Source: a virus
Virus record (IMG/VR): IMGVR_UViG_3300048597_000392
Span: 1 to 23,593 of that record
Strand: one strand, 5' to 3'
DNA length: 23,593 bases
Both the position numbers and the translations under genes were made by a program. Positions 836-23,019 of this stretch are shown here, in pieces (position 1 is the stretch's first letter; each line of letters starts with the position of its first letter). The notes beneath the pieces were generated by a model that made no database searches, had not been told where the DNA came from, and saw only the letters and a list, made by a program, of their open reading frames with translations.

Positions 836-1050
836 CCGGACTTGCGCTGGGCGAGGAACCAAGCCGCAACGGGATCCACCTGCATGAGGTGAGCGGGCAT
901 CGGTTCTGGGTCCGGCCACTGCCCGGTCTCATCCGCGATCTTGCGTCTGCGATCCAGTTCAGCCTGCGCGCTAGGTACCCCGGTCGAGGCCATGTCCCGG
1001 AGTTCGAAGATGTCCAGGTAGGGGACGTGCTCAGGACCGAGACATGTCAC
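832..1050 (-). CDS. Hypothetical protein in the portal/MuF block
   Basis: The GTG at 1050 overlaps the stop of the upstream MuF gene (GTGA), with a purine-rich stretch (caggggtgg) just before it. It encodes 72 residues beginning MTCLGPEHVPYLDIFELRDM, with a central acidic/basic helix (AQAELDRRRKIADETGQW) and a C-terminal PVAAWFLAQRK. There is no membrane segment or recognised motif. Tight overlap with genes on both sides indicates a polycistronic minus-strand message with portal and MuF. A small head-assembly accessory role is possible but is only inferred from position. Confidence 0.6.
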   Translation of the reverse strand: MTCLGPEHVPYLDIFELRDMASTGVPSAQAELDRRRKIADETGQWPDPEPMPAHLMQVDPVAAWFLAQRKSG

Positions 1051-2564
1051 TGCGACCACCCCTGTTCCCGACCTACGCGTGCGACCCACCCGGGGCGCGT
1101 GGCTGGGTCTCCCCACACCCATTCCACGAACGCTTCGGCCACCATCTCCACAGCGTTCTGCTTCCCGTAGGCCCTCGTCATTTCCCCCACCAGTTCGTTG
1201 TGCAACTCCTCAGCCCGTGCCGTGTACCCGTGCCTGTCCACGGTATGCCCCGCTTCATGGGTCATCAACCCGGTGAGGTAGTCCGGTGATGCCTTCCAGC
1301 CGTCGACGACGCCCATGGCCTGGGGGTCGTGGATCCGATCGCCCCAGGAGCCGATGAAGTTCCGGTTCATCGTGATCTGGCGACCACCGATCTTGGCCCA
1401 GGCCCCCGCGGAGGGAATCTTCGGCGTCTCCCCCACCACGATGGTGTACCCGTCCGTGAACTGACTGGTGGTCCGCAGCGACGGCGGCCACCTGCTCATC
1501 GTGGAGCGCAGCGCGTCGGAGAGCCGTTGGGCGACCTGCGCACTGCCCGGCACGCTCTGGTGGATCCGGTACTGGTGCAGCCCGTCGCTGTACAGGTCCG
1601 CCTGCTTCAGCGAGTCGATGTCCGCTTCGCGTTGCCCCTGGGTGGTGGCGGGCTGCGCCCACTTCCATTCCTCGGTACTGATCGGGGTCACGGCGTCCCG
1701 CATCCGGGGCACTGCGCGCATCGGGTCGGGCTGCTGCCCCCGTGGTGCGGGGCCACGGCCGCGGCGCGCCCGTTCCTGGGTGCGGGCGAAGGGGCTGGTG
1801 GTGTACCGGTCCATGGTGCCGGTGGCGTCCCATGCGGCGGCGGCCTGGTCGACGAGGGCGCCGACGTCGCTGCTCGGGTCGAGGTACCCGGTCAGGGGTG
1901 TGCCGCGGGGCACGGCGAGGGTGCGGCAGCGGCACCACGGGTGGTAGGGGCCGACGCGTCCTTGGGCGGTGCGCTGGCTGGTGTAGACGGGGCCGCGGGA
2001 GGCCAGGAGCAGGCACCAGGGGCAGCCGTTGGTGGCGGGGATCCGGGCCCAGCCCAGGCCCGCGGCCTGGAGGGTGTGTTCGTGGGCGGTGCGCGCGGTG
2101 CGGGCCCCGATCCCGGCGGCGCCGCGGCCGGCGCGCTGCCGGGCGTGCTGCAGCGCCTGCTCGGGTGCGGCCCCGGCGGCGATCCGCTGCTTGGCCTCGA
2201 TCAGGACCGTCAGCCGCAGCTGCGCGGCGGTGCCGGCGGCGTCCGGGAGCAGCCCCGGCGGCGGGCCGGTGACGGTGGACAGGCCGCCGGCGGGGTCGGC
2301 GCCCCACGCTGCGGCGGCGTCACCGGCGACCGAGGCGGAAGTGGCTGCGGCGGTCCGCCACGCCGCGGCCAGTGCCGCGACGGCGGCGGGTTCGGCGGCG
2401 GTGTAGGTGTCGTCCAGGCGGCCCGGGGACAGGACGTTGACGAGGGCGTCGACGGCGGCGACCGACCGGGCCCGCACCAGCGCCAGGGTCCCGGCGTGCC
2501 GTTCGGCGGCGGCCACCGCCCCCACCGGGACGTCCGCGGTCAGCACCCCCGGCCCGATCGCCAC
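1047..2564 (-). CDS. MuF-type minor capsid protein with C-terminal zinc metallopeptidase domain
   Basis: 505 residues from GTG 2564, placed 2 nt after the portal stop; other starts nearby are possible and no strong Shine-Dalgarno sequence is seen. Residues about 115-220 carry the MuF/head-morphogenesis signature: helix LIEAKQRIAAG, then CPWCLLLASRGPVY (C181, C184) and YHPWCRCRTLAV (H208, C211, C213), a likely metal-binding cluster. Residues about 315-505 form a second domain with HEAGHTVDRHG: H436, E437 and H440 make an HExxH zinc motif, and Glu residues in VEMVAEAFVEW (473-481) are candidates for the third ligand. MuF proteins join the portal-proximal head and may be injected with the DNA. 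C-terminal enzymatic or toxin domains on MuF proteins are known in temperate phages. The C-terminal half is visibly less GC-rich than the N-terminal half, suggesting domain acquisition. Confidence 0.85.
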   Translation of the reverse strand: MAIGPGVLTADVPVGAVAAAERHAGTLALVRARSVAAVDALVNVLSPGRLDDTYTAAEPAAVAALAAAWRTAAATSASVAGDAAAAWGADPAGGLSTVTGPPPGLLPDAAGTAAQLRLTVLIEAKQRIAAGAAPEQALQHARQRAGRGAAGIGARTARTAHEHTLQAAGLGWARIPATNGCPWCLLLASRGPVYTSQRTAQGRVGPYHPWCRCRTLAVPRGTPLTGYLDPSSDVGALVDQAAAAWDATGTMDRYTTSPFARTQERARRGRGPAPRGQQPDPMRAVPRMRDAVTPISTEEWKWAQPATTQGQREADIDSLKQADLYSDGLHQYRIHQSVPGSAQVAQRLSDALRSTMSRWPPSLRTTSQFTDGYTIVVGETPKIPSAGAWAKIGGRQITMNRNFIGSWGDRIHDPQAMGVVDGWKASPDYLTGLMTHEAGHTVDRHGYTARAEELHNELVGEMTRAYGKQNAVEMVAEAFVEWVWGDPATRPGWVARVGREQGWSQ

Positions 2565-2566
2565 GT

Positions 2567-3991
2567 TCAGGCGCCGTACGCTGCTGCCTGGGCGGCCGCG
2601 GCCTGCGCCTGCTCCGCCGCGGCCAGGGCCAGGACCCGGTCGATGGCCTGCGGGCTCCACCCGAACGTCTCCAGCAGCGCCGCCAACGGCAGGCCCGCCT
2701 GCCGCAGCTTCAACATCGCGTCGGCGACGGCGCCGGGGGAGCGGACCTCGGTGTTGCGCCACACCACCTCGAGCTGGTCGTCGTCGGCGACCTGCGGCAC
2801 GTCCGCGGCGCGGGCGGCCAGGCGCACCACCTGCTCCCACGCCTCCCCCAGGTCCAGCTGGCGGCGCCGGACCTTCGCCGCGAGGCCGGACTCCGCCGCC
2901 AGCAGGGCCTCCGCGGACGGGGGGTTCGCCGACCCGCCCAGCAGGTAGTGGGCGGGGGTGCGGGTCACCGACGCCAGGTGCTTGATGTCCTGCTCGACGG
3001 CTTCCACGATGGGGCGCAGGTCGGTGGCGGCGAAGTCCCCGAACTCCGCGGCCGGGTCCTCGGCGGTCCACAGCAGGTCCGCGCCGTACCGGAACGGCGC
3101 CGGCCCCGGCACCGGCAGGCCGTCCGGGCCGAGCACCGGTTCCCCGGTGTCGGGGTCGAGCGTGTCGGGCAGCCGGATCCCGGTGGCCCACCGCTGCCGG
3201 TACGCCCCGAACTTCCCCGCGGTCAGCCGGCCCAGCACCGTCTCGGTGATCCGGTCGATCGCGGGCAGGTGCGCCTGCAGGTCGGACACGCCGTCGCCGC
3301 GCAGGTCGGGCAGGTTCGCGATCCGCACCACCGGGCAGCCGCCGAGGGTGTGGGCGGCGGCCTCCACCGGCACCCACGCCCCCGAGGGGGCCAGGTCGAT
3401 GCTGTCCACGGGGTCGCGCCACCAGCGGACCACCCGCAGGGCGGGGGCGCGATGGGACCGAGGCGCGGGCCGCGCCCACGTGCGGGCCTCGTCCGGGCCG
3501 TACCACGCCAGCAGCTCCACGCCGCCGGCGGTCCAGGTGTGCACGGCCTCGGCCAACGCCCACGGGCCGCTGCCGGCGCGGACCCCGATCGTGTCCCGGG
3601 AGTCCAGGCCCCGCACCGACGCCCCGCCGGCGGCGGCGGGCCACACCAGCACGTAGGAGGCTCCCGACACCAGGGCGTCGACGTGGACCGCGTTCTGCCG
3701 GGCGTCCAACGCGCTGCCCTGCCACAGCGCCCACGCCGCCGCGGACGCCTGCGACCCGGCGGTGCAGTTCACGCCCTCCACCACGAGCCGTTCGGCGACG
3801 GCGTCGACCACCAGGGCCCCCCACGCGGTGCGGGCCAGGTCCACCAGCCGGCGCAGCTCCTCGCTGGCCTGCCGCGGCACGTGCGGCAGGGCGCTGCGGC
3901 CCGCGTAGTACTCGTGCAGGACGTCCAGGCGGGCGGCGTCGGCGCGCAGGTCCTGCAGCAGGGACGTGGCGCGGGACAGCGGATCGGTCAT
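2567..3991 (-). CDS. Portal protein (SPP1 gp6-like)
   Basis: 474 residues from ATG 3991. It shows the usual portal layout: an N-terminal helical region (LDVLHEYYAGRSALP), a middle beta-rich section, the long helix and clip section around IDRITETVLGRLTAGKFGAYRQRWATG, then VEAVEQDIKHLASVTRTPAHYLLG, a pattern I associate with actinophage portals, and an Ala/Gln-rich end. The portal forms the dodecameric vertex through which terminase pumps DNA. It is the first gene of a minus-strand unit (portal, MuF, three small genes) although the terminase and all other head genes are on the plus strand, which is unusual. Identification is from length, motif pattern and its place next to MuF. Confidence 0.85.
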   Translation of the reverse strand: MTDPLSRATSLLQDLRADAARLDVLHEYYAGRSALPHVPRQASEELRRLVDLARTAWGALVVDAVAERLVVEGVNCTAGSQASAAAWALWQGSALDARQNAVHVDALVSGASYVLVWPAAAGGASVRGLDSRDTIGVRAGSGPWALAEAVHTWTAGGVELLAWYGPDEARTWARPAPRSHRAPALRVVRWWRDPVDSIDLAPSGAWVPVEAAAHTLGGCPVVRIANLPDLRGDGVSDLQAHLPAIDRITETVLGRLTAGKFGAYRQRWATGIRLPDTLDPDTGEPVLGPDGLPVPGPAPFRYGADLLWTAEDPAAEFGDFAATDLRPIVEAVEQDIKHLASVTRTPAHYLLGGSANPPSAEALLAAESGLAAKVRRRQLDLGEAWEQVVRLAARAADVPQVADDDQLEVVWRNTEVRSPGAVADAMLKLRQAGLPLAALLETFGWSPQAIDRVLALAAAEQAQAAAAQAAAYGA

Positions 3992-18206: not shown

Positions 18207-18258
18207 CGGTGGCGCGTCGGAAATGACAGGGGTGTGATTGGGCCGACGGGAGGACACG

Positions 18259-19944
18259 GTGCAGCTCGCGTCCGTTCAACCCCACGCAGGGACCACCGTT
18301 TCGGACGTGGGCAGCCTTTTCGGGAATGCACTCTTCTACGGGGACAACCTGCCCATCCTGCGCGACCAGATCGACGCCGAGTCCGTGGACCTCGTGTACC
18401 TGGACCCGCCGTTCAACTCCAACGCGAACTACAACGTGCTGTTCAAGCAGTCCGACGGGGCCCCCGGCTCGGCGCAGGTCCACGCCTTCGAGGACTCCTG
18501 GCACTGGGGCCCGGAGGCGGAGCGGACCTACCACGACCTGATCCACGGCGGGTCCACCGAACTCGCCGACCTCGCCGAGGCGCTCAGGACGATGCTCGGC
18601 ACCAGCGACATGCTCGCCTACCTCGTGATGATGGCCCCCCGCCTCGTGGAGTTGCGGCGGGTGCTGAAGCCGACCGGCTCCCTGTACCTGCACTGCGACC
18701 CCACCAGCAGCCACTACCTGAAGATGCTGCTGGACGCGATCTTCGGCCCCCGCAACTTCCGCAACGAGGTCATCTGGAAGCGCACCGGTGCCCACGGCGC
18801 GGCGAAGAAGTTCGCGCCGGTCCACGACGTGATCCTGCTCTACGGGCGGGGTGGGACCACCGTCTGGAACCGCCAGTTCCACCCCTACGACGAGTCCTAC
18901 CTGTCCACGAAGTACAGGTTCGACGACGCCCGAGGCCGTTACAGGCTCATCACGCTCCAGCCTCCCGGGCGGCGCAACGGCGCAACCGGTCAGCCCTGGC
19001 GCGGGTTCGATCCGGACAGGAAGGGGATGCATTGGAGGTTCCCTCCGCACCGCCTGGACGAACTCGACGAGGAGGGGGTCATCGTCTGGGGACGGCCGGG
19101 AACGACCCCTCAACTCAAGCACTACTTGGACCTCGAGGCCGGGGTACCGGTCCAGGACGTCTGGACTGACCTCCCTCCAGTGAACTCGCGCGCCGCCGAG
19201 CGGATCGGCTACCCGACCCAGAAGCCCGTCGCCCTGCTGGAGAGGATCATCAGGGCGTCCAGCAACCCCGGCGACCTCGTGCTGGACCCGTTCTGCGGGT
19301 GCGGCACCACCGTGGACGCGGCCCAGCGACTCGACCGCAACTGGATCGGCATCGACATCTCGTACCTGGCCATCGACATCATCGACAAGAGGCTGAGGAA
19401 GGTCTACGGCGACTCCGTCGCGGCGACCTACGAGATCAAGGGCAGCCCGCACGACATCGAGGGGGCGCGGGCCCTGGCGGTGCGGGACAAGTTCGAGTTC
19501 GAGCGGTGGGCGGTGTCCCTGGTGGACGCCCAGCCGAACTCCAAGCAGGTCGGCGACAGGGGCATCGACGGCGTGGCCAGGTTCGCCACCGGCCCGAAGA
19601 CGTATCGCCGCATCCTCGTGAGCGTCAAGGGCGGTGCCAACAACCCCGGCTTCGTCCGGGACCTCGCTGGCACCGTGTCCGCCAACCGAGCGGCGATGGG
19701 AATCATGGTCACGCTGAACCCGCCGACGAAGGGGATGCTGGAGGCTGCCGCATCGGCCGGGGTGTACCGGCACGTCAACGGCAGGACGTACCCCAGGGTC
19801 CAGATCATGGCCGTGGCGGACCTCCTCGGGGGCAGGACCCCCGACCGACCCTCGACGCTCATGCCGTACGTCGAGGGCGAGTCTATGACCGAGGAGCCAG
19901 AGGAAGGCGGGCAGGGACGCCGGCGCGACCTGCGGGGCGCGTAG
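18259..19944 (+). CDS. DNA methyltransferase (beta-class N4/N6) fused to a restriction-endonuclease-like domain
   Basis: 561 residues from GTG 18259, chosen for gggagg 5 nt upstream; a TTG at 18238 would add 7 residues. Motif IV VYLDPPFNSN (47-56) precedes motif I DPFCGCGTT (343-351): the beta-class order of amino-methyltransferases with the target recognition region between them. Residues about 408-530 form a second domain: FEFERWAVSLVDAQP, GDRGIDGVARF (D434, D437) and ILVSVKGGA (K457), which fits a PD-(D/E)XK or Mrr-like nuclease pattern. The methylase would protect phage DNA from host restriction; the nuclease domain may cut or only bind. It follows the late operon on the plus strand and faces the minus-strand lysogeny region. 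No specificity can be predicted. Confidence 0.85.
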   Translation: MQLASVQPHAGTTVSDVGSLFGNALFYGDNLPILRDQIDAESVDLVYLDPPFNSNANYNVLFKQSDGAPGSAQVHAFEDSWHWGPEAERTYHDLIHGGSTELADLAEALRTMLGTSDMLAYLVMMAPRLVELRRVLKPTGSLYLHCDPTSSHYLKMLLDAIFGPRNFRNEVIWKRTGAHGAAKKFAPVHDVILLYGRGGTTVWNRQFHPYDESYLSTKYRFDDARGRYRLITLQPPGRRNGATGQPWRGFDPDRKGMHWRFPPHRLDELDEEGVIVWGRPGTTPQLKHYLDLEAGVPVQDVWTDLPPVNSRAAERIGYPTQKPVALLERIIRASSNPGDLVLDPFCGCGTTVDAAQRLDRNWIGIDISYLAIDIIDKRLRKVYGDSVAATYEIKGSPHDIEGARALAVRDKFEFERWAVSLVDAQPNSKQVGDRGIDGVARFATGPKTYRRILVSVKGGANNPGFVRDLAGTVSANRAAMGIMVTLNPPTKGMLEAAASAGVYRHVNGRTYPRVQIMAVADLLGGRTPDRPSTLMPYVEGESMTEEPEEGGQGRRRDLRGA

Positions 19945-20024: not shown

Positions 20025-20450
20025 CTAGCGGCGGCCGCCGTCGAAGACCTTGTGGTGCGGGTCCCACCAGAGGGCGAAGAACACGTCGTCGACGATGTAC
20101 CCCCACAAACGGGCGGCGGCTGTGACTCGGAATTCGTAGAGGCAGCCCTCGGCTGCGTCCCTGACCTCCTCGTGGAGGCCGTCCCACAACTCCCGGCCCA
20201 CCTGGCGCAGGTTCACCGGCGCCACCCGGGTCAGAAGCCGCACCCCCTCGGTCGTGTGCGAGTGCAGCGCGGTGGCGTCCTGCGACGCGCAGACATGCAG
20301 CAGCTGCGCCAACGCCAGCAGCATGTCCCCATCGAGCTCCGGATCCAACGCCTGGAGCCGGGACACGTCCGCCCTCAACGACTGCCGGTGGGCCACACCA
20401 GGGACCTTGAAGTCGTTCAGCCGTGCCCGGCCCTTCTGCCGATTCCCCAC
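20025..20450 (-). CDS. Probable toxin partner of the Panacea antitoxin
   Basis: 141 residues from GTG 20450, 5 nt after the Panacea stop. The N-terminal part is helical and basic (MGNRQKGRARLNDFKV, RADVSRLQALDPELDGD), the middle contains LLALAQLLHVCASQDATALHSH, and the C-terminus has the notable VTAAARLWGYIVDDVFFALWWDPHHKVFDG. The WWDPxH ending resembles small prophage toxin-like proteins, but I cannot name the family. Panacea (SocA/DUF4065) proteins are commonly encoded next to diverse toxins, which is the main reason for the call. It is convergent with the methyltransferase, 80 nt away. It could be a non-toxic accessory protein. Confidence 0.55.
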   Translation of the reverse strand: MGNRQKGRARLNDFKVPGVAHRQSLRADVSRLQALDPELDGDMLLALAQLLHVCASQDATALHSHTTEGVRLLTRVAPVNLRQVGRELWDGLHEEVRDAAEGCLYEFRVTAAARLWGYIVDDVFFALWWDPHHKVFDGGRR

Positions 20451-20455
20451 GGGGC

Positions 20456-20926
20456 CTAGTAGTCGATGCTGACGGCCGTCGGATCGGCGTGCAGCGCCCG
20501 GTAGTAGTCGCGCATCGTGTCCAGGCTGATGCGGTCCGTCCCGGCCTGCCGCAGCGGCTTGCCTGCGCGGGCCTCGATCCACGGCCGGTCCGCGTGGGTC
20601 ATGCTGACGAGCTCGTGCGGCTCGAACTGGTCGTACGCGGCGAGGACGTCGTTCAAGAACGGGGCGTCGTAGTCGTCGATCAACTCATGGTCCCCGCCGA
20701 CGGTTGCGACGGTGTACCGGCCCCGGTGCCGGTCGTACACCTCGCGGACCACCGGCCCGTTCACCCACGCCTCGATCGGCTCCTCGAACAGCTGCACGTC
20801 CCGCAGGGCCAAGGACCACGCCTGCGCGTAGTAGACGATCTTCTGCAGCTTGAACGCCGACATCGGGCCGTCGTGCCTGCGCAGCAGGTACTCGGCGACG
20901 TCCACTGCCCTGTACACGGTCTCCAT
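20456..20926 (-). CDS. Panacea (SocA-like, DUF4065) antitoxin-type protein
   Basis: 156 residues from ATG 20926, with AAGGGGGG 4 nt upstream. It starts with the family's usual N-terminus (VDVAEYLLRRHDGPMSAFKLQKIVYYAQAWSLAL), followed by LFEEPIEAWVNGPVVREVYDRHRG, the hallmark EAW-x-GPVV-x-EVY region, then FLNDVLAAYDQFEPHELVSMTH and PWIEAR. Panacea domains neutralise unrelated toxins in PanAT modules, and SocA acts as a ClpXP adaptor for its toxin. The frame is open upstream, without a stop, to GTG 21205, so a longer 249-residue form is possible (see 20927-21205). The order here is antitoxin then toxin, downstream of the integrase. Confidence 0.8.
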   Translation of the reverse strand: METVYRAVDVAEYLLRRHDGPMSAFKLQKIVYYAQAWSLALRDVQLFEEPIEAWVNGPVVREVYDRHRGRYTVATVGGDHELIDDYDAPFLNDVLAAYDQFEPHELVSMTHADRPWIEARAGKPLRQAGTDRISLDTMRDYYRALHADPTAVSIDY

Positions 20927-21205
20927 CGTGCCCCCCTTGATGCTGGTCTGGCGACCGTAAGTGTGCGGTGCCGGTCCGACCCGTCCCGCTGGAGGGGTCC
21001 GGCGCACTACCCGCGCCCCCGCCGCGGCGCCGGGACGGCCGGGGGCCGCCCACCGTTCCGCCCACACCGCCTCCCCGTCCCTGACCGGGCACCGCCACAC
21101 CACCCACCCGTCGGCCGTCTCCTGCACCAGCTCCACGAACCCGGCCGCCCCGTCCTCGAACCGGCACCCGTCCAACGGCCCACCCACCCACACGTACCTG
21201 GTCAC
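20927..21205 (-). other. In-frame 5' extension of the Panacea ORF, resembling a separate small phage protein
   Basis: GTG 21205 overlaps the integrase stop (GTGA) and opens a frame that runs without a stop into the Panacea gene. Its first ~60 residues (RYVWVGGPLDGCRFEDG, FVELVQETADGWVVWRCPV, EAVWAERW) look like the small 'VGGPLDG' proteins of actinophages, which normally end on their own. A Pro/Gly/Arg-rich stretch then leads to the Panacea Met. Either the small gene lost its stop and fused, giving a 249-residue protein, or Panacea is started internally. The internal ribosome-binding site favours at least some separate Panacea. Confidence 0.5.
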
Positions 21206-22041
21206 GCCGCCACCAACAGCGCGGACCGTGGGGCCGGCACCACGTGCCCGGCCGCAGCCCGCAGCCGCTGCCTGGGCACGCCGACGTAGATCTGCGTCGT
21301 CGCCGGTGAGGCATGCCCCAGCAGCCGCTGCACCGCCAGCAGGTCCCCCGTGCCGTCATGGACGGTCGAGGCGAACCAGTGCCGCACCTCGTGCGGCGCG
21401 CAGCCCGTCGCGGCCTTCACCCGTCGCCGCAGGGTGCAGGGATGCAGGTGGCCCGTGAACCGGCCCGGGAACACCCAGCCCGGCCCACGCTCGAGCAGCG
21501 CCCGGCGCAGCGCCGGGTCCTCGATCGGCAGCCACCGGGACCGATCCCCCTTCCCGCGCACCGTCACCCCGCGGCCGTCGGCGTCGAGGTCCTCCCGCCG
21601 CAGCGCCACGGCCTCCGCGCACCGCAGCCCGAGCCGGGCCAGCACCAGCACCATCAGCGCGGTGTCCTCGTCCCGGACGTCGAGGCCGGCGGCCACCTGC
21701 GCGTGCGACGCCGGCCTCGCCGTCCCGGGGACCTGCCGGACCGGCGCGATCCCCAGCATCGGGTTCCGCTTCCGCTTCACCACCTTCTCCGCGACCAGCA
21801 GCCGGTACATGGAGCCCAGCGCCATCCGCGCGGACTTGTGGCTCGACGCCGACCACGACTGCTCTGCGATCCACGCCTTCACGTCCCGGTGCCCGGCCTG
21901 GACAGGGTCCACGCCGTTCACTGCGCACCACCGGCCCCACCGGCGCAGGTAGCTGCGCCACGTCCGCACCGTCTCCGGTGACAGCCGTCGGGACCGCAGG
22001 TCGGTCTCCCACAGGCCCATCGCCTCATCCCACCGCATCAT
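21202..22041 (-). CDS. int: Tyrosine site-specific integrase, C-terminus with ssrA-like -ALLVAA
   Basis: 279 residues from ATG 22041, selected because ggaggtgg is well spaced upstream; a TTG at 22092 would add 17. The N-terminal ~100 residues form a SAM-like core-binding domain (AMGLWETDLRSRRLSPETV, ALGSMYRLLVAEKVV). The catalytic domain has R140 (LGLRCAEAV), K164 (RGKGD), H217 and R220 (HEVRHW), H243 (LLGHAS) and the nucleophile Y252 (TQIYVG). There is no N-terminal arm-binding domain of obvious size. The protein ends SALLVAA, similar to the -ALAA end of ssrA tags, so it may be a ClpXP substrate. It probably recombines the fMet-tRNA core at 22775-22814. It is served by the TTGACA promoter at 22112-22141. 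Confidence 0.92.
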   Translation of the reverse strand: MMRWDEAMGLWETDLRSRRLSPETVRTWRSYLRRWGRWCAVNGVDPVQAGHRDVKAWIAEQSWSASSHKSARMALGSMYRLLVAEKVVKRKRNPMLGIAPVRQVPGTARPASHAQVAAGLDVRDEDTALMVLVLARLGLRCAEAVALRREDLDADGRGVTVRGKGDRSRWLPIEDPALRRALLERGPGWVFPGRFTGHLHPCTLRRRVKAATGCAPHEVRHWFASTVHDGTGDLLAVQRLLGHASPATTQIYVGVPRQRLRAAAGHVVPAPRSALLVAA

Positions 22042-22111
22042 CCGCACCACCTCCACCGGCCATTTCGATTCCTCATTCCCGTTGCCGTGCAATAGGAATC
22101 CTGCCGAGGGC

Positions 22112-22450: not shown

Positions 22451-22648
22451 TCATGCGCCCTCCCCGGGCAGCAGCCCGCCGGGCGCGTGGTACCGCGCGA
22501 ACAGCTCGGCGTGGATCTCCGGGAACGCCGACCGGAGCGCCTCCATGTTGAAGGTGTCCGCCTTGCGCATCGCAGCCATGACCAGCGCGGCGAACGGCCA
22601 GTCGCGCTGTGCGATCTCGAGGGACGCCTGGTAGTCGTACCAGCTCAT
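22451..22648 (-). CDS. Small conserved-looking phage protein (MSWYDYQ type)
   Basis: 65 residues from ATG 22648, which overlaps the last base of the long repressor form's stop (TGATG). The sequence MSWYDYQASLEIAQRDWPFA, ALVMAAMRKADTFNMEALRSAFPEIHAEL, ARYHAPGG follows a pattern I have seen in actinophage hypothetical proteins. It is helical and soluble, with function unknown. Its start is coupled to translation of the unintegrated (phage-form) repressor. After integration the two genes would lie at opposite prophage ends, so its expression could be switched by integration. Confidence 0.65.
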   Translation of the reverse strand: MSWYDYQASLEIAQRDWPFAALVMAAMRKADTFNMEALRSAFPEIHAELFARYHAPGGLLPGEGA

Positions 22649-23019
22649 CACGCCGCCGTTTGCAGGTCGCGGCCGCCGGGCAGCACGACGAGTGCTGGAA
22701 CGGGGCGGGGGGAGCGGGGCTGCCATGCGCGCCGCGCCCCGGCGATCAGCGTGAACGCGGGACGGGACGCTCGCAACCCAGAGGTCGCAGGTTCAAATCC
22801 TGCCCCCGCTACCAGGAAGAGGCGTCCGGGTTCCACTCCAAGGAACCCGGACGCTTTCTCTATATCCCGGGCCAGCCAGGCCACTTCGCCGCGCAGCTTC
22901 TTGTTCAGCGACGACCTCGAGATGCCCATGTGCTGGCACATCTGGTCCTGCTTGATCCGTCGAAGCCACAACAGCTCGTGGACGTTGGCGCCGATCACCT
23001 GGTCTGTCTCATCGTCCAC
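22648..23019 (-). CDS. Immunity repressor, phage (long) form with attP inside the gene and -LQTAA end
   Basis: 123 residues from GTG 23019; no strong ribosome-binding site, so the start is tentative. Residues about 12-68 are a Cro/C1-type helix-turn-helix: NVHELLWLRRIKQDQMCQHMGISRSSLNKKLRGEVAW, then IEKASGFLGVEPGRLF. Residues about 70-82 (VAGAGFEPATSGL) are the well-known translation of an antisense tRNA 3' end, i.e. the attP core. The last 41 residues (phage-only) are low-complexity and end DLQTAA, an ssrA-like end. Integration at an fMet tRNA gene should truncate the protein to about 82 residues. It is divergent from the terminase operon, so it may directly control it, and a palindrome overlaps its start. 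Confidence 0.8.
   Translation of the reverse strand: MDDETDQVIGANVHELLWLRRIKQDQMCQHMGISRSSLNKKLRGEVAWLARDIEKASGFLGVEPGRLFLVAGAGFEPATSGLRASRPAFTLIAGARRAWQPRSPRPVPALVVLPGGRDLQTAA
22775..22814 (+). other. attP: attP core: 3' half of an initiator (fMet) tRNA gene
   Basis: From AACCCAGAGGTCGCAGG onward the 40 bases contain the 3' anticodon stem, the variable loop, a complete T-arm (GCAGG, loop TTCAAAT, CCTGC), the acceptor 3' strand CCCCGCT and ACCA. I recognise this as the 3' end of an actinobacterial fMet tRNA. The anticodon CAT is absent (CTCGCAA instead of CTCATAA) and there is no 5' half, so it is an attachment core, not a tRNA gene. Integration would restore the host tRNA from its own 5' half and this 3' half. 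Confidence 0.85.
22822..22865 (+). terminator. Rho-independent terminator downstream of the attP tRNA end
   Basis: GCGTCCGGGTTCC (22822-22834), 7-nt loop, GGAACCCGGACGC (22842-22854): a perfect 13-bp stem, followed by TTTCTCTATAT. It begins 8 nt after the tRNA ACCA. On the minus strand the same bases are repressor codons for about residues 56-66. In a lysogen it would terminate transcription of the reconstituted tRNA. Confidence 0.8.

What the first reader, a model, noticed from the sequence alone, without database searches (positions are those of the whole stretch)
22775..22814. Host anticodon is predicted to supply the stop codon of the lysogenic repressor
Across the core the repressor frame reads ...ACC TCT GGG TT. 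In the phage it continues TTG CGA GCG. In an fMet tRNA gene the antisense continues TTA TGA, because the loop is CTCATAA. Integration would give ...ATSGL followed by TGA, an ~82-residue repressor, with the stop formed by the antisense of the initiator anticodon loop. The host tRNA sequence is from memory, so this is a prediction, but it is exact and testable. It would explain the choice of the initiator tRNA as target.
Basis: partly seen in the sequence, partly recalled or inferred. Interest (0 to 1): 0.8.

Follow-up and report, generated by a model that had tools for sequence, protein, structure and literature searches.

The report
Phage repressor truncated by initiator-tRNA stop
This phage carries its docking site inside its own repressor gene, so inserting into the host's initiator-tRNA gene cuts the repressor short at a stop codon supplied by the host; this is a new example of a known phage switch (integration-dependent immunity), and related prophages sequenced in bacteria show the predicted junction.

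Summary
Window 22775-22814 is identical, 40 of 40 bases, to the 3' half of an actinobacterial initiator tRNA gene. It lies antisense inside a 123-codon HTH repressor ORF (23019-22648, minus strand). Joined to real host initiator-tRNA genes, the frame reads ...ATS-G-L(TTA)-TGA: an 82-residue repressor whose stop is the antisense of U33-C34-A35. Sequenced relatives already show this junction: Bifidobacterium prophages and an Aurantimicrobium element end their repressors at ...TSGL-TGA in an intact initiator tRNA, and three rebuilt Bifidobacterium viral forms end in an ssrA-like ...ILAA.

The mechanism is known. Integration-dependent immunity, with a host-supplied stop at attL, is published, also for B. 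breve prophages at tRNA-Met.

The claim that the stop explains the choice of the initiator tRNA is not supported. In one genome 17 of 45 tRNAs give an immediate stop in some frame, and relatives do the same with tRNA-Lys and tRNA-Arg. In this core only one antisense frame is open, so the frame is forced.

Extra lead: a terminator-like hairpin for the rebuilt tRNA lies inside the repressor codons here and in many relatives.

The parts
22775..22814 (+). attP common core, identical to the 3' half (A37 to CCA end) of an actinobacterial initiator tRNA-Met(CAT) gene
   Evidence: blastn against 45 tRNA genes of one genome; 40/40 with L227 and L228, mismatch immediately on both sides
22648..23019 (-). 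viral form of the immunity repressor, 123 aa, GTG start, HTH domain residues 9-67, core encodes VAGAGFEPATSG(L)
   Evidence: PHROG 4583 transcriptional repressor E 5e-8 and Pfam BetR above cut-off; 33-40% identical to Bifidobacterium prophage repressors
22774..23019 (-). part of the repressor kept in the predicted lysogen: 82 residues ending ATSGL, stop TGA supplied by host tRNA DNA (antisense of U33-C34-A35)
   Evidence: virtual attL with real host initiator-tRNA genes; same junction in sequenced prophages
22648..22773 (-). phage-only C-terminal tail, residues 83-123, ending ...DLQTAA (ssrA-like XXXAA end); lost on integration
   Evidence: translation; stop overlaps next gene start as TGATG; relatives mostly end in AA or AAA
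22822..22861 (+). terminator-like hairpin (13-bp stem, 7-nt loop, then TTTCTCT) just after the tRNA CCA, inside repressor codons EKASGFLGVEPGR
   Evidence: fold -33.8 kcal/mol, z -5.9; strongest hairpin of the gene, at +4 from the tRNA end
22451..22648 (-). 65-aa ORF (MSWYDYQ...) between repressor and integrase, start codon overlapping the viral repressor stop
   Evidence: TGATG overlap; only a weak PHROG match for the ORF
21202..22092 (-). tyrosine integrase, 296 aa, C-terminus ...ALLVAA (ssrA-like)
   Evidence: Pfam Phage_integrase E 3e-17; closest phage relatives are the integrases of Charlie, Dogfish and Emperor type phages

Best explanation
This is an integration-dependent immunity switch. 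The free phage makes a 123-aa repressor with a C-terminal tail ending QTAA, expected to be degraded. The integrase recombines the core inside the repressor gene with the host initiator-tRNA gene. At the new junction the host 5' half of the tRNA gene is completed by the phage core into a whole tRNA, and, read on the other strand, it supplies TTA-TGA, so the repressor now ends after 82 residues without the tail and becomes the stable, active form. Shown: core, frame, stop with real host genes, tRNA regeneration in the virtual junction, and the same junction in sequenced relatives. Inferred: recombination in this phage's own (unknown) host, instability of the long form, activity of the short form.
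For: 40/40 core to initiator tRNA. HTH repressor and tyrosine integrase in the usual order on one strand. Repressor ends LQTAA and integrase ends LLVAA. The viral reading frame looks real to its end: its stop overlaps the next start codon (TGATG). Homologous Bifidobacterium repressors end ...FEPWTSGL-TGA in complete tRNA-Met genes, and three of four rebuilt viral forms end ILAA. Another phage, L013, has the same core and frame, with viral form ...TSGL-VAA and predicted lysogen form ...TSGL. Method control: the same procedure on phage Hope (BPs group) gives 136 to 103 aa, the published lengths for BPs gp33 (PMC4557955).
Against: No lysogen of this phage was found: integrase searches of 294 genomes of the Nocardioides family (E 1e-30) and 396 genomes of the phylum gave no close match (best about 35% identity). 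The host is unknown. No divergent cro-like gene is seen; a terminase start lies next on the right before the contig ends. The degron is judged only by its last residues.
Confidence: 0.88

Rival explanations
1. The overlap of repressor ORF and tRNA core is incidental: the antisense of a tRNA 3' half happens to be open, and truncation has no regulatory role.
For: One antisense frame of this core is open by nature, so an ORF can run through it without selection.
Against: Many different repressors of tRNA-integrating actinophages have the core inside the gene, with immediate or near stops and mostly AA-ending viral tails; Bifidobacterium prophages and L013 share it; repressor stop and next start overlap.
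Confidence: 0.06
2. The repressor is active in both forms; integration changes only the C-terminus, and the tail has some other role (for example DNA binding or interaction) rather than degradation.
For: The window tail ends QTAA, not the canonical LAA; some published systems lack ssrA-like ends (PMC8092301); the rebuilt circular form of the Aurantimicrobium element ends PVGHTG and that of one Bifidobacterium record (G308) ends YWALVD.
Against: Both repressor and integrase of this phage end in AA, as in experimentally studied systems; most relatives do so too.
Confidence: 0.1
3. The initiator tRNA was chosen as target because its anticodon loop supplies the stop.
For: The stop does include anticodon bases C34 and A35 and U33, so it is fixed in initiator tRNAs.
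Against: 17 of 45 tRNA genes of one genome give an equally early stop in some frame; relatives use tRNA-Lys and tRNA-Arg with the same result; Arthrobacter phage Galaxy uses tRNA-Met with attP outside the repressor (PMC5513430).
Confidence: 0.04

Closest known systems
Integration-dependent immunity of B. breve prophages Bb423phi2 and 689b-1 at tRNA-Met (PMC6109161)
   Same: Same target tRNA, attP in the repressor near its 3' end, ssrA-like viral tail lost on integration, small genome (about 18 kb); Bifidobacterium prophage repressors at this site (L130-L132) are 33-40% identical to this one over about 60 residues and end at the same TGA.
   Different: Other host; core differs in the T stem; viral tails end ILAA in related records, here QTAA.
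Integration-dependent immunity of mycobacteriophages BPs, Charlie, Brujita (Broussard et al. 2013, cited; PMC4557955)
   Same: Repressor-integrase order on one strand, attP core inside the repressor gene, host-supplied stop at or near attL, integrase of the Charlie type as nearest phage relative.
   Different: Those use other tRNAs (Lys for Charlie and Arg for the BPs group by my matching); a divergent cro-like gene is present there and not seen here.
M. abscessus prophages MabC, MabK, MabN, MabO (PMC8092301)
   Same: Stop codon formed by the first bacterial base at attL; repressor shortened by 20-35 residues there, 41 here.
   Different: Different attB sites; of the clusters listed there only MabB and MabK are said to sit at tRNA genes.
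Gordonia small phages Emperor, SallySpecial, GMA5
   Same: Small temperate phages, repressor with tRNA core in frame, immediate stop, AA-ending viral form, hairpin after the tRNA end.
   Different: tRNA-Lys(CTT) target, stop TAA.

Membership tests
Integration-dependent immunity system | attP common core lies inside the repressor coding sequence | tested here: met
   Core 22775-22814 inside ORF 22648-23019
[quoted passage not shown]
   40/40 to initiator tRNA genes L227, L228; attL regenerates the tRNA
Integration-dependent immunity system | Prophage form shorter because of a stop codon from bacterial sequence at or near attL | tested here: met
   82 aa with TGA in virtual junctions; same stop seen in sequenced relatives. 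Not observed for this phage's own lysogen
Integration-dependent immunity system | Viral repressor carries an ssrA-like C-terminal tag (XXXAA) | tested here: met
   Ends DLQTAA; integrase ends LLVAA; sequence only
Integration-dependent immunity system | Long form degraded and inactive, short form stable and active | not testable with these tools
   Needs expression and lysogeny experiments
Integration-dependent immunity system | Tyrosine integrase close downstream of the repressor on the same strand | tested here: met
   21202-22092, one small ORF between
Integration-dependent immunity system | Divergent cro-like gene (usual, not among the three defining features) | tested here: inconclusive
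   Only a 41-codon ORF and a terminase start to the right before the contig ends

The most novel reading that the evidence does not exclude
The repressor gene of this and many related phages also encodes, inside its codons, the transcription terminator of the rebuilt host tRNA: a strong hairpin placed within a few bases of the tRNA 3' end and pointing at the repressor. One stretch would then serve as protein code, attachment-site flank and tRNA terminator, keeping tRNA transcription from running antisense into the repressor.
Probability: 0.5. Interest if true: 0.45.

Novelty: new member of a known kind. Interest (0 to 1): 0.3.

Why it matters
It extends integration-dependent immunity to another uncultivated actinophage and shows, from sequenced prophages, that the host initiator-tRNA gene does supply the repressor stop. 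It also corrects a tempting over-reading: a prompt stop is common in tRNA antisense and does not explain the choice of tRNA. The terminator-like hairpin written inside the repressor codons is a testable constraint that no held paper on these systems mentions.

Tried and rejected
Search for close relatives of the repressor in IMG/VR: none. Exact 40-bp core in IMG/VR: none besides the window. A first degenerate pattern gave none; a looser one gave 91 stretches, of which one new phage (L013) had the core in a repressor. Integrase searches of the Nocardioides family and of the phylum gave no close lysogen. The idea that the initiator tRNA is special because of its stop was tested on all tRNAs of one genome and rejected. 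Arthrobacter Galaxy-type phages share the target but have attP outside the repressor. Rfam finds no RNA family in the window. The 2013 founding paper is not held.

Full report
What is there. The window is an IMG/VR record of 23,593 bases. It carries siphophage genes (portal, scaffold), a tyrosine integrase at 22092-21202 and an HTH repressor at 23019-22648, both on the minus strand. ARAGORN finds no tRNA in the window. The stretch 22775-22814 is the 3' half of an initiator tRNA gene: 38/38 against the annotated initiator tRNA of Nocardioides soli, with 20 bp as the next best match among 45 tRNAs of that genome, and 40/40 against two other actinobacterial initiator genes. The flanks on both sides are phage DNA, so this is attP.

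Junction. Antisense to the tRNA, the core reads VAGAGFEPATSG plus two bases of a leucine codon. In the phage the codon is TTG and the ORF goes on to ...GRDLQTAA. With real host 5' halves it is TTA followed by TGA, giving 82 residues (L112, L111, L227, L228, L125, L117). The TGA is the antisense of U33-C34-A35, so it is fixed in any tRNA with anticodon CAU. The virtual attL contains an intact tRNA-Met(CAT), the virtual attR none. The viral frame looks real to its end: its TGA overlaps the ATG of the next ORF (TGATG).

Relatives confirm the junction. Bifidobacterium prophage records at the same tRNA (L128, L132, L133 with complete tRNA-Met by ARAGORN; L129-L131 and L138 cut at the core) hold repressors that end ...LVAGHGFEPWTSGL with TGA from the tRNA. 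That these records are Bifidobacterium is my inference from their core, which matches the att sites printed for B. breve in PMC6109161. L130-L132 are homologues of the window repressor (33-40% identity over 60-65 residues). Joining attL and attR of three such records gives viral forms ending ...SAFILAA or ...FDFILAA; a fourth (G308) gives a tail without AA. An element in Aurantimicrobium minutum (G003, 38.9 kb between its two cores) shows the same junction, with a 24-residue extension in its rebuilt circular form. L013, a phage contig with an otherwise different repressor, has viral form ...PATSGL-VAA, so integration would remove just VAA.

Is it special to the initiator tRNA? No. For all distinct tRNA genes of N. 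soli I read the three antisense frames from the 3' end across the anticodon: 17 of 45 tRNAs have an open frame that stops within one codon, 30 of 45 within ten. Nineteen repressors (the window, L013, and 17 next to related integrases) were then matched to tRNAs of two genomes. Those with long matches stop within 0-3 codons: Met (window, L013), Lys (Charlie, Redi, Dogfish, Bunker, IdentityCrisis, Emperor, SallySpecial, GMA5, Rem711) and Arg (Pipp, Jambalaya, Hope). Matches for the Ala and Thr cases are short and their counts unsure. For Hope the method returns 136 to 103 residues, the published values for BPs, a good control. In the window's core two of three antisense frames are closed, so once the repressor runs through the core its frame, and hence the stop, is fixed.

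Literature. PMC9934374 lists the core in the repressor, the bacterial stop at attL and the ssrA-like tag as the key features. PMC8092301 states that in four M. abscessus prophage clusters the stop forms with the first bacterial base. PMC6109161 reports the system at tRNA-Met of B. breve. The finding is therefore a new member of a known kind.

A further feature. Directly after the tRNA CCA, at 22822-22854, lies a 13-bp hairpin followed by TTTCTCT, pointing with the tRNA and coded inside EKASGFLGVEPGR (fold -33.8 kcal/mol, z -5.9). Hairpins at the same place occur in L013, in every Bifidobacterium record tested, in the Aurantimicrobium element, and in Emperor and Pipp. Across the 19 repressor genes the best hairpin starts within 10 bases of the tRNA end in about 13 (several of them close kin), but not in Charlie, Redi, IdentityCrisis, BigNuz, Brujita or Hope (Redi and IdentityCrisis have theirs 13-21 bases upstream). 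In L130-L132 the stem pairs fully in all three, with three pairs changed on both sides, far above slid controls (only three sequences). Empty host sites also have hairpins there, so the simple reading is that the phage replaces the host terminator it displaces. The tool's own terminator scan did not list this hairpin, because its tail holds too few T in a row for that rule. A putative terminator beside an attP core was noted before in cluster K phages (PMC3203893). Papers held on integration-dependent immunity do not mention one in the repressor; the founding paper is not held, so its novelty is uncertain.

Limits. The host of the window phage is unknown, no lysogen of it was found, and degradation of the long form is inferred from two alanines.

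Noticed in passing
window 22822-22861: Terminator-like hairpin inside repressor codons directly after the tRNA 3' end; recurs in many related repressors, with compensatory changes in L130-L132.
   Followed up: partly
L126, L135, L139 (Bifidobacterium-type records): The sequence left of the core is not tRNA but still carries ATCAT before AACCC, so the same TGA is present beside a non-tRNA arm; perhaps tandem elements or an attP that keeps the stop.
   Followed up: no
G003 (Aurantimicrobium minutum) C1:2001-40946; L095, L206: Element between two initiator-tRNA cores holds a TraG/VirD4-type coupling protein and an HTH gene ending at the tRNA stop, so it may be a conjugative element using the same arrangement; its integrase ORF looks shortened.
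   Followed up: partly
window 1047-3991 (-) against 4029 onwards (+) and 23173 (+): Portal and the MuF-like gene lie on the minus strand between terminase start and scaffold gene on the plus strand, an unusual order that may be an inversion or an assembly fault; no long inverted repeat explains it.
   Followed up: partly
window 18238-19944 (+): DNA methyltransferase with a C-terminal restriction-endonuclease-like (Mrr, NA-iREase) domain.
   Followed up: no
window 20025-21205 (-): Panacea (SocA-like antitoxin) domain protein next to a small ORF without known Pfam family, possibly a toxin-antitoxin pair beside the integrase.
   Followed up: no
G001 (Actinomycetales MAG62), loci L093, L113, L121, L123-L125: Six copies of the initiator-tRNA 3' half, several in non-tRNA surroundings with TCAT or TTAT before AACCC, suggesting several elements at this site or a mixed bin.
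   Followed up: no
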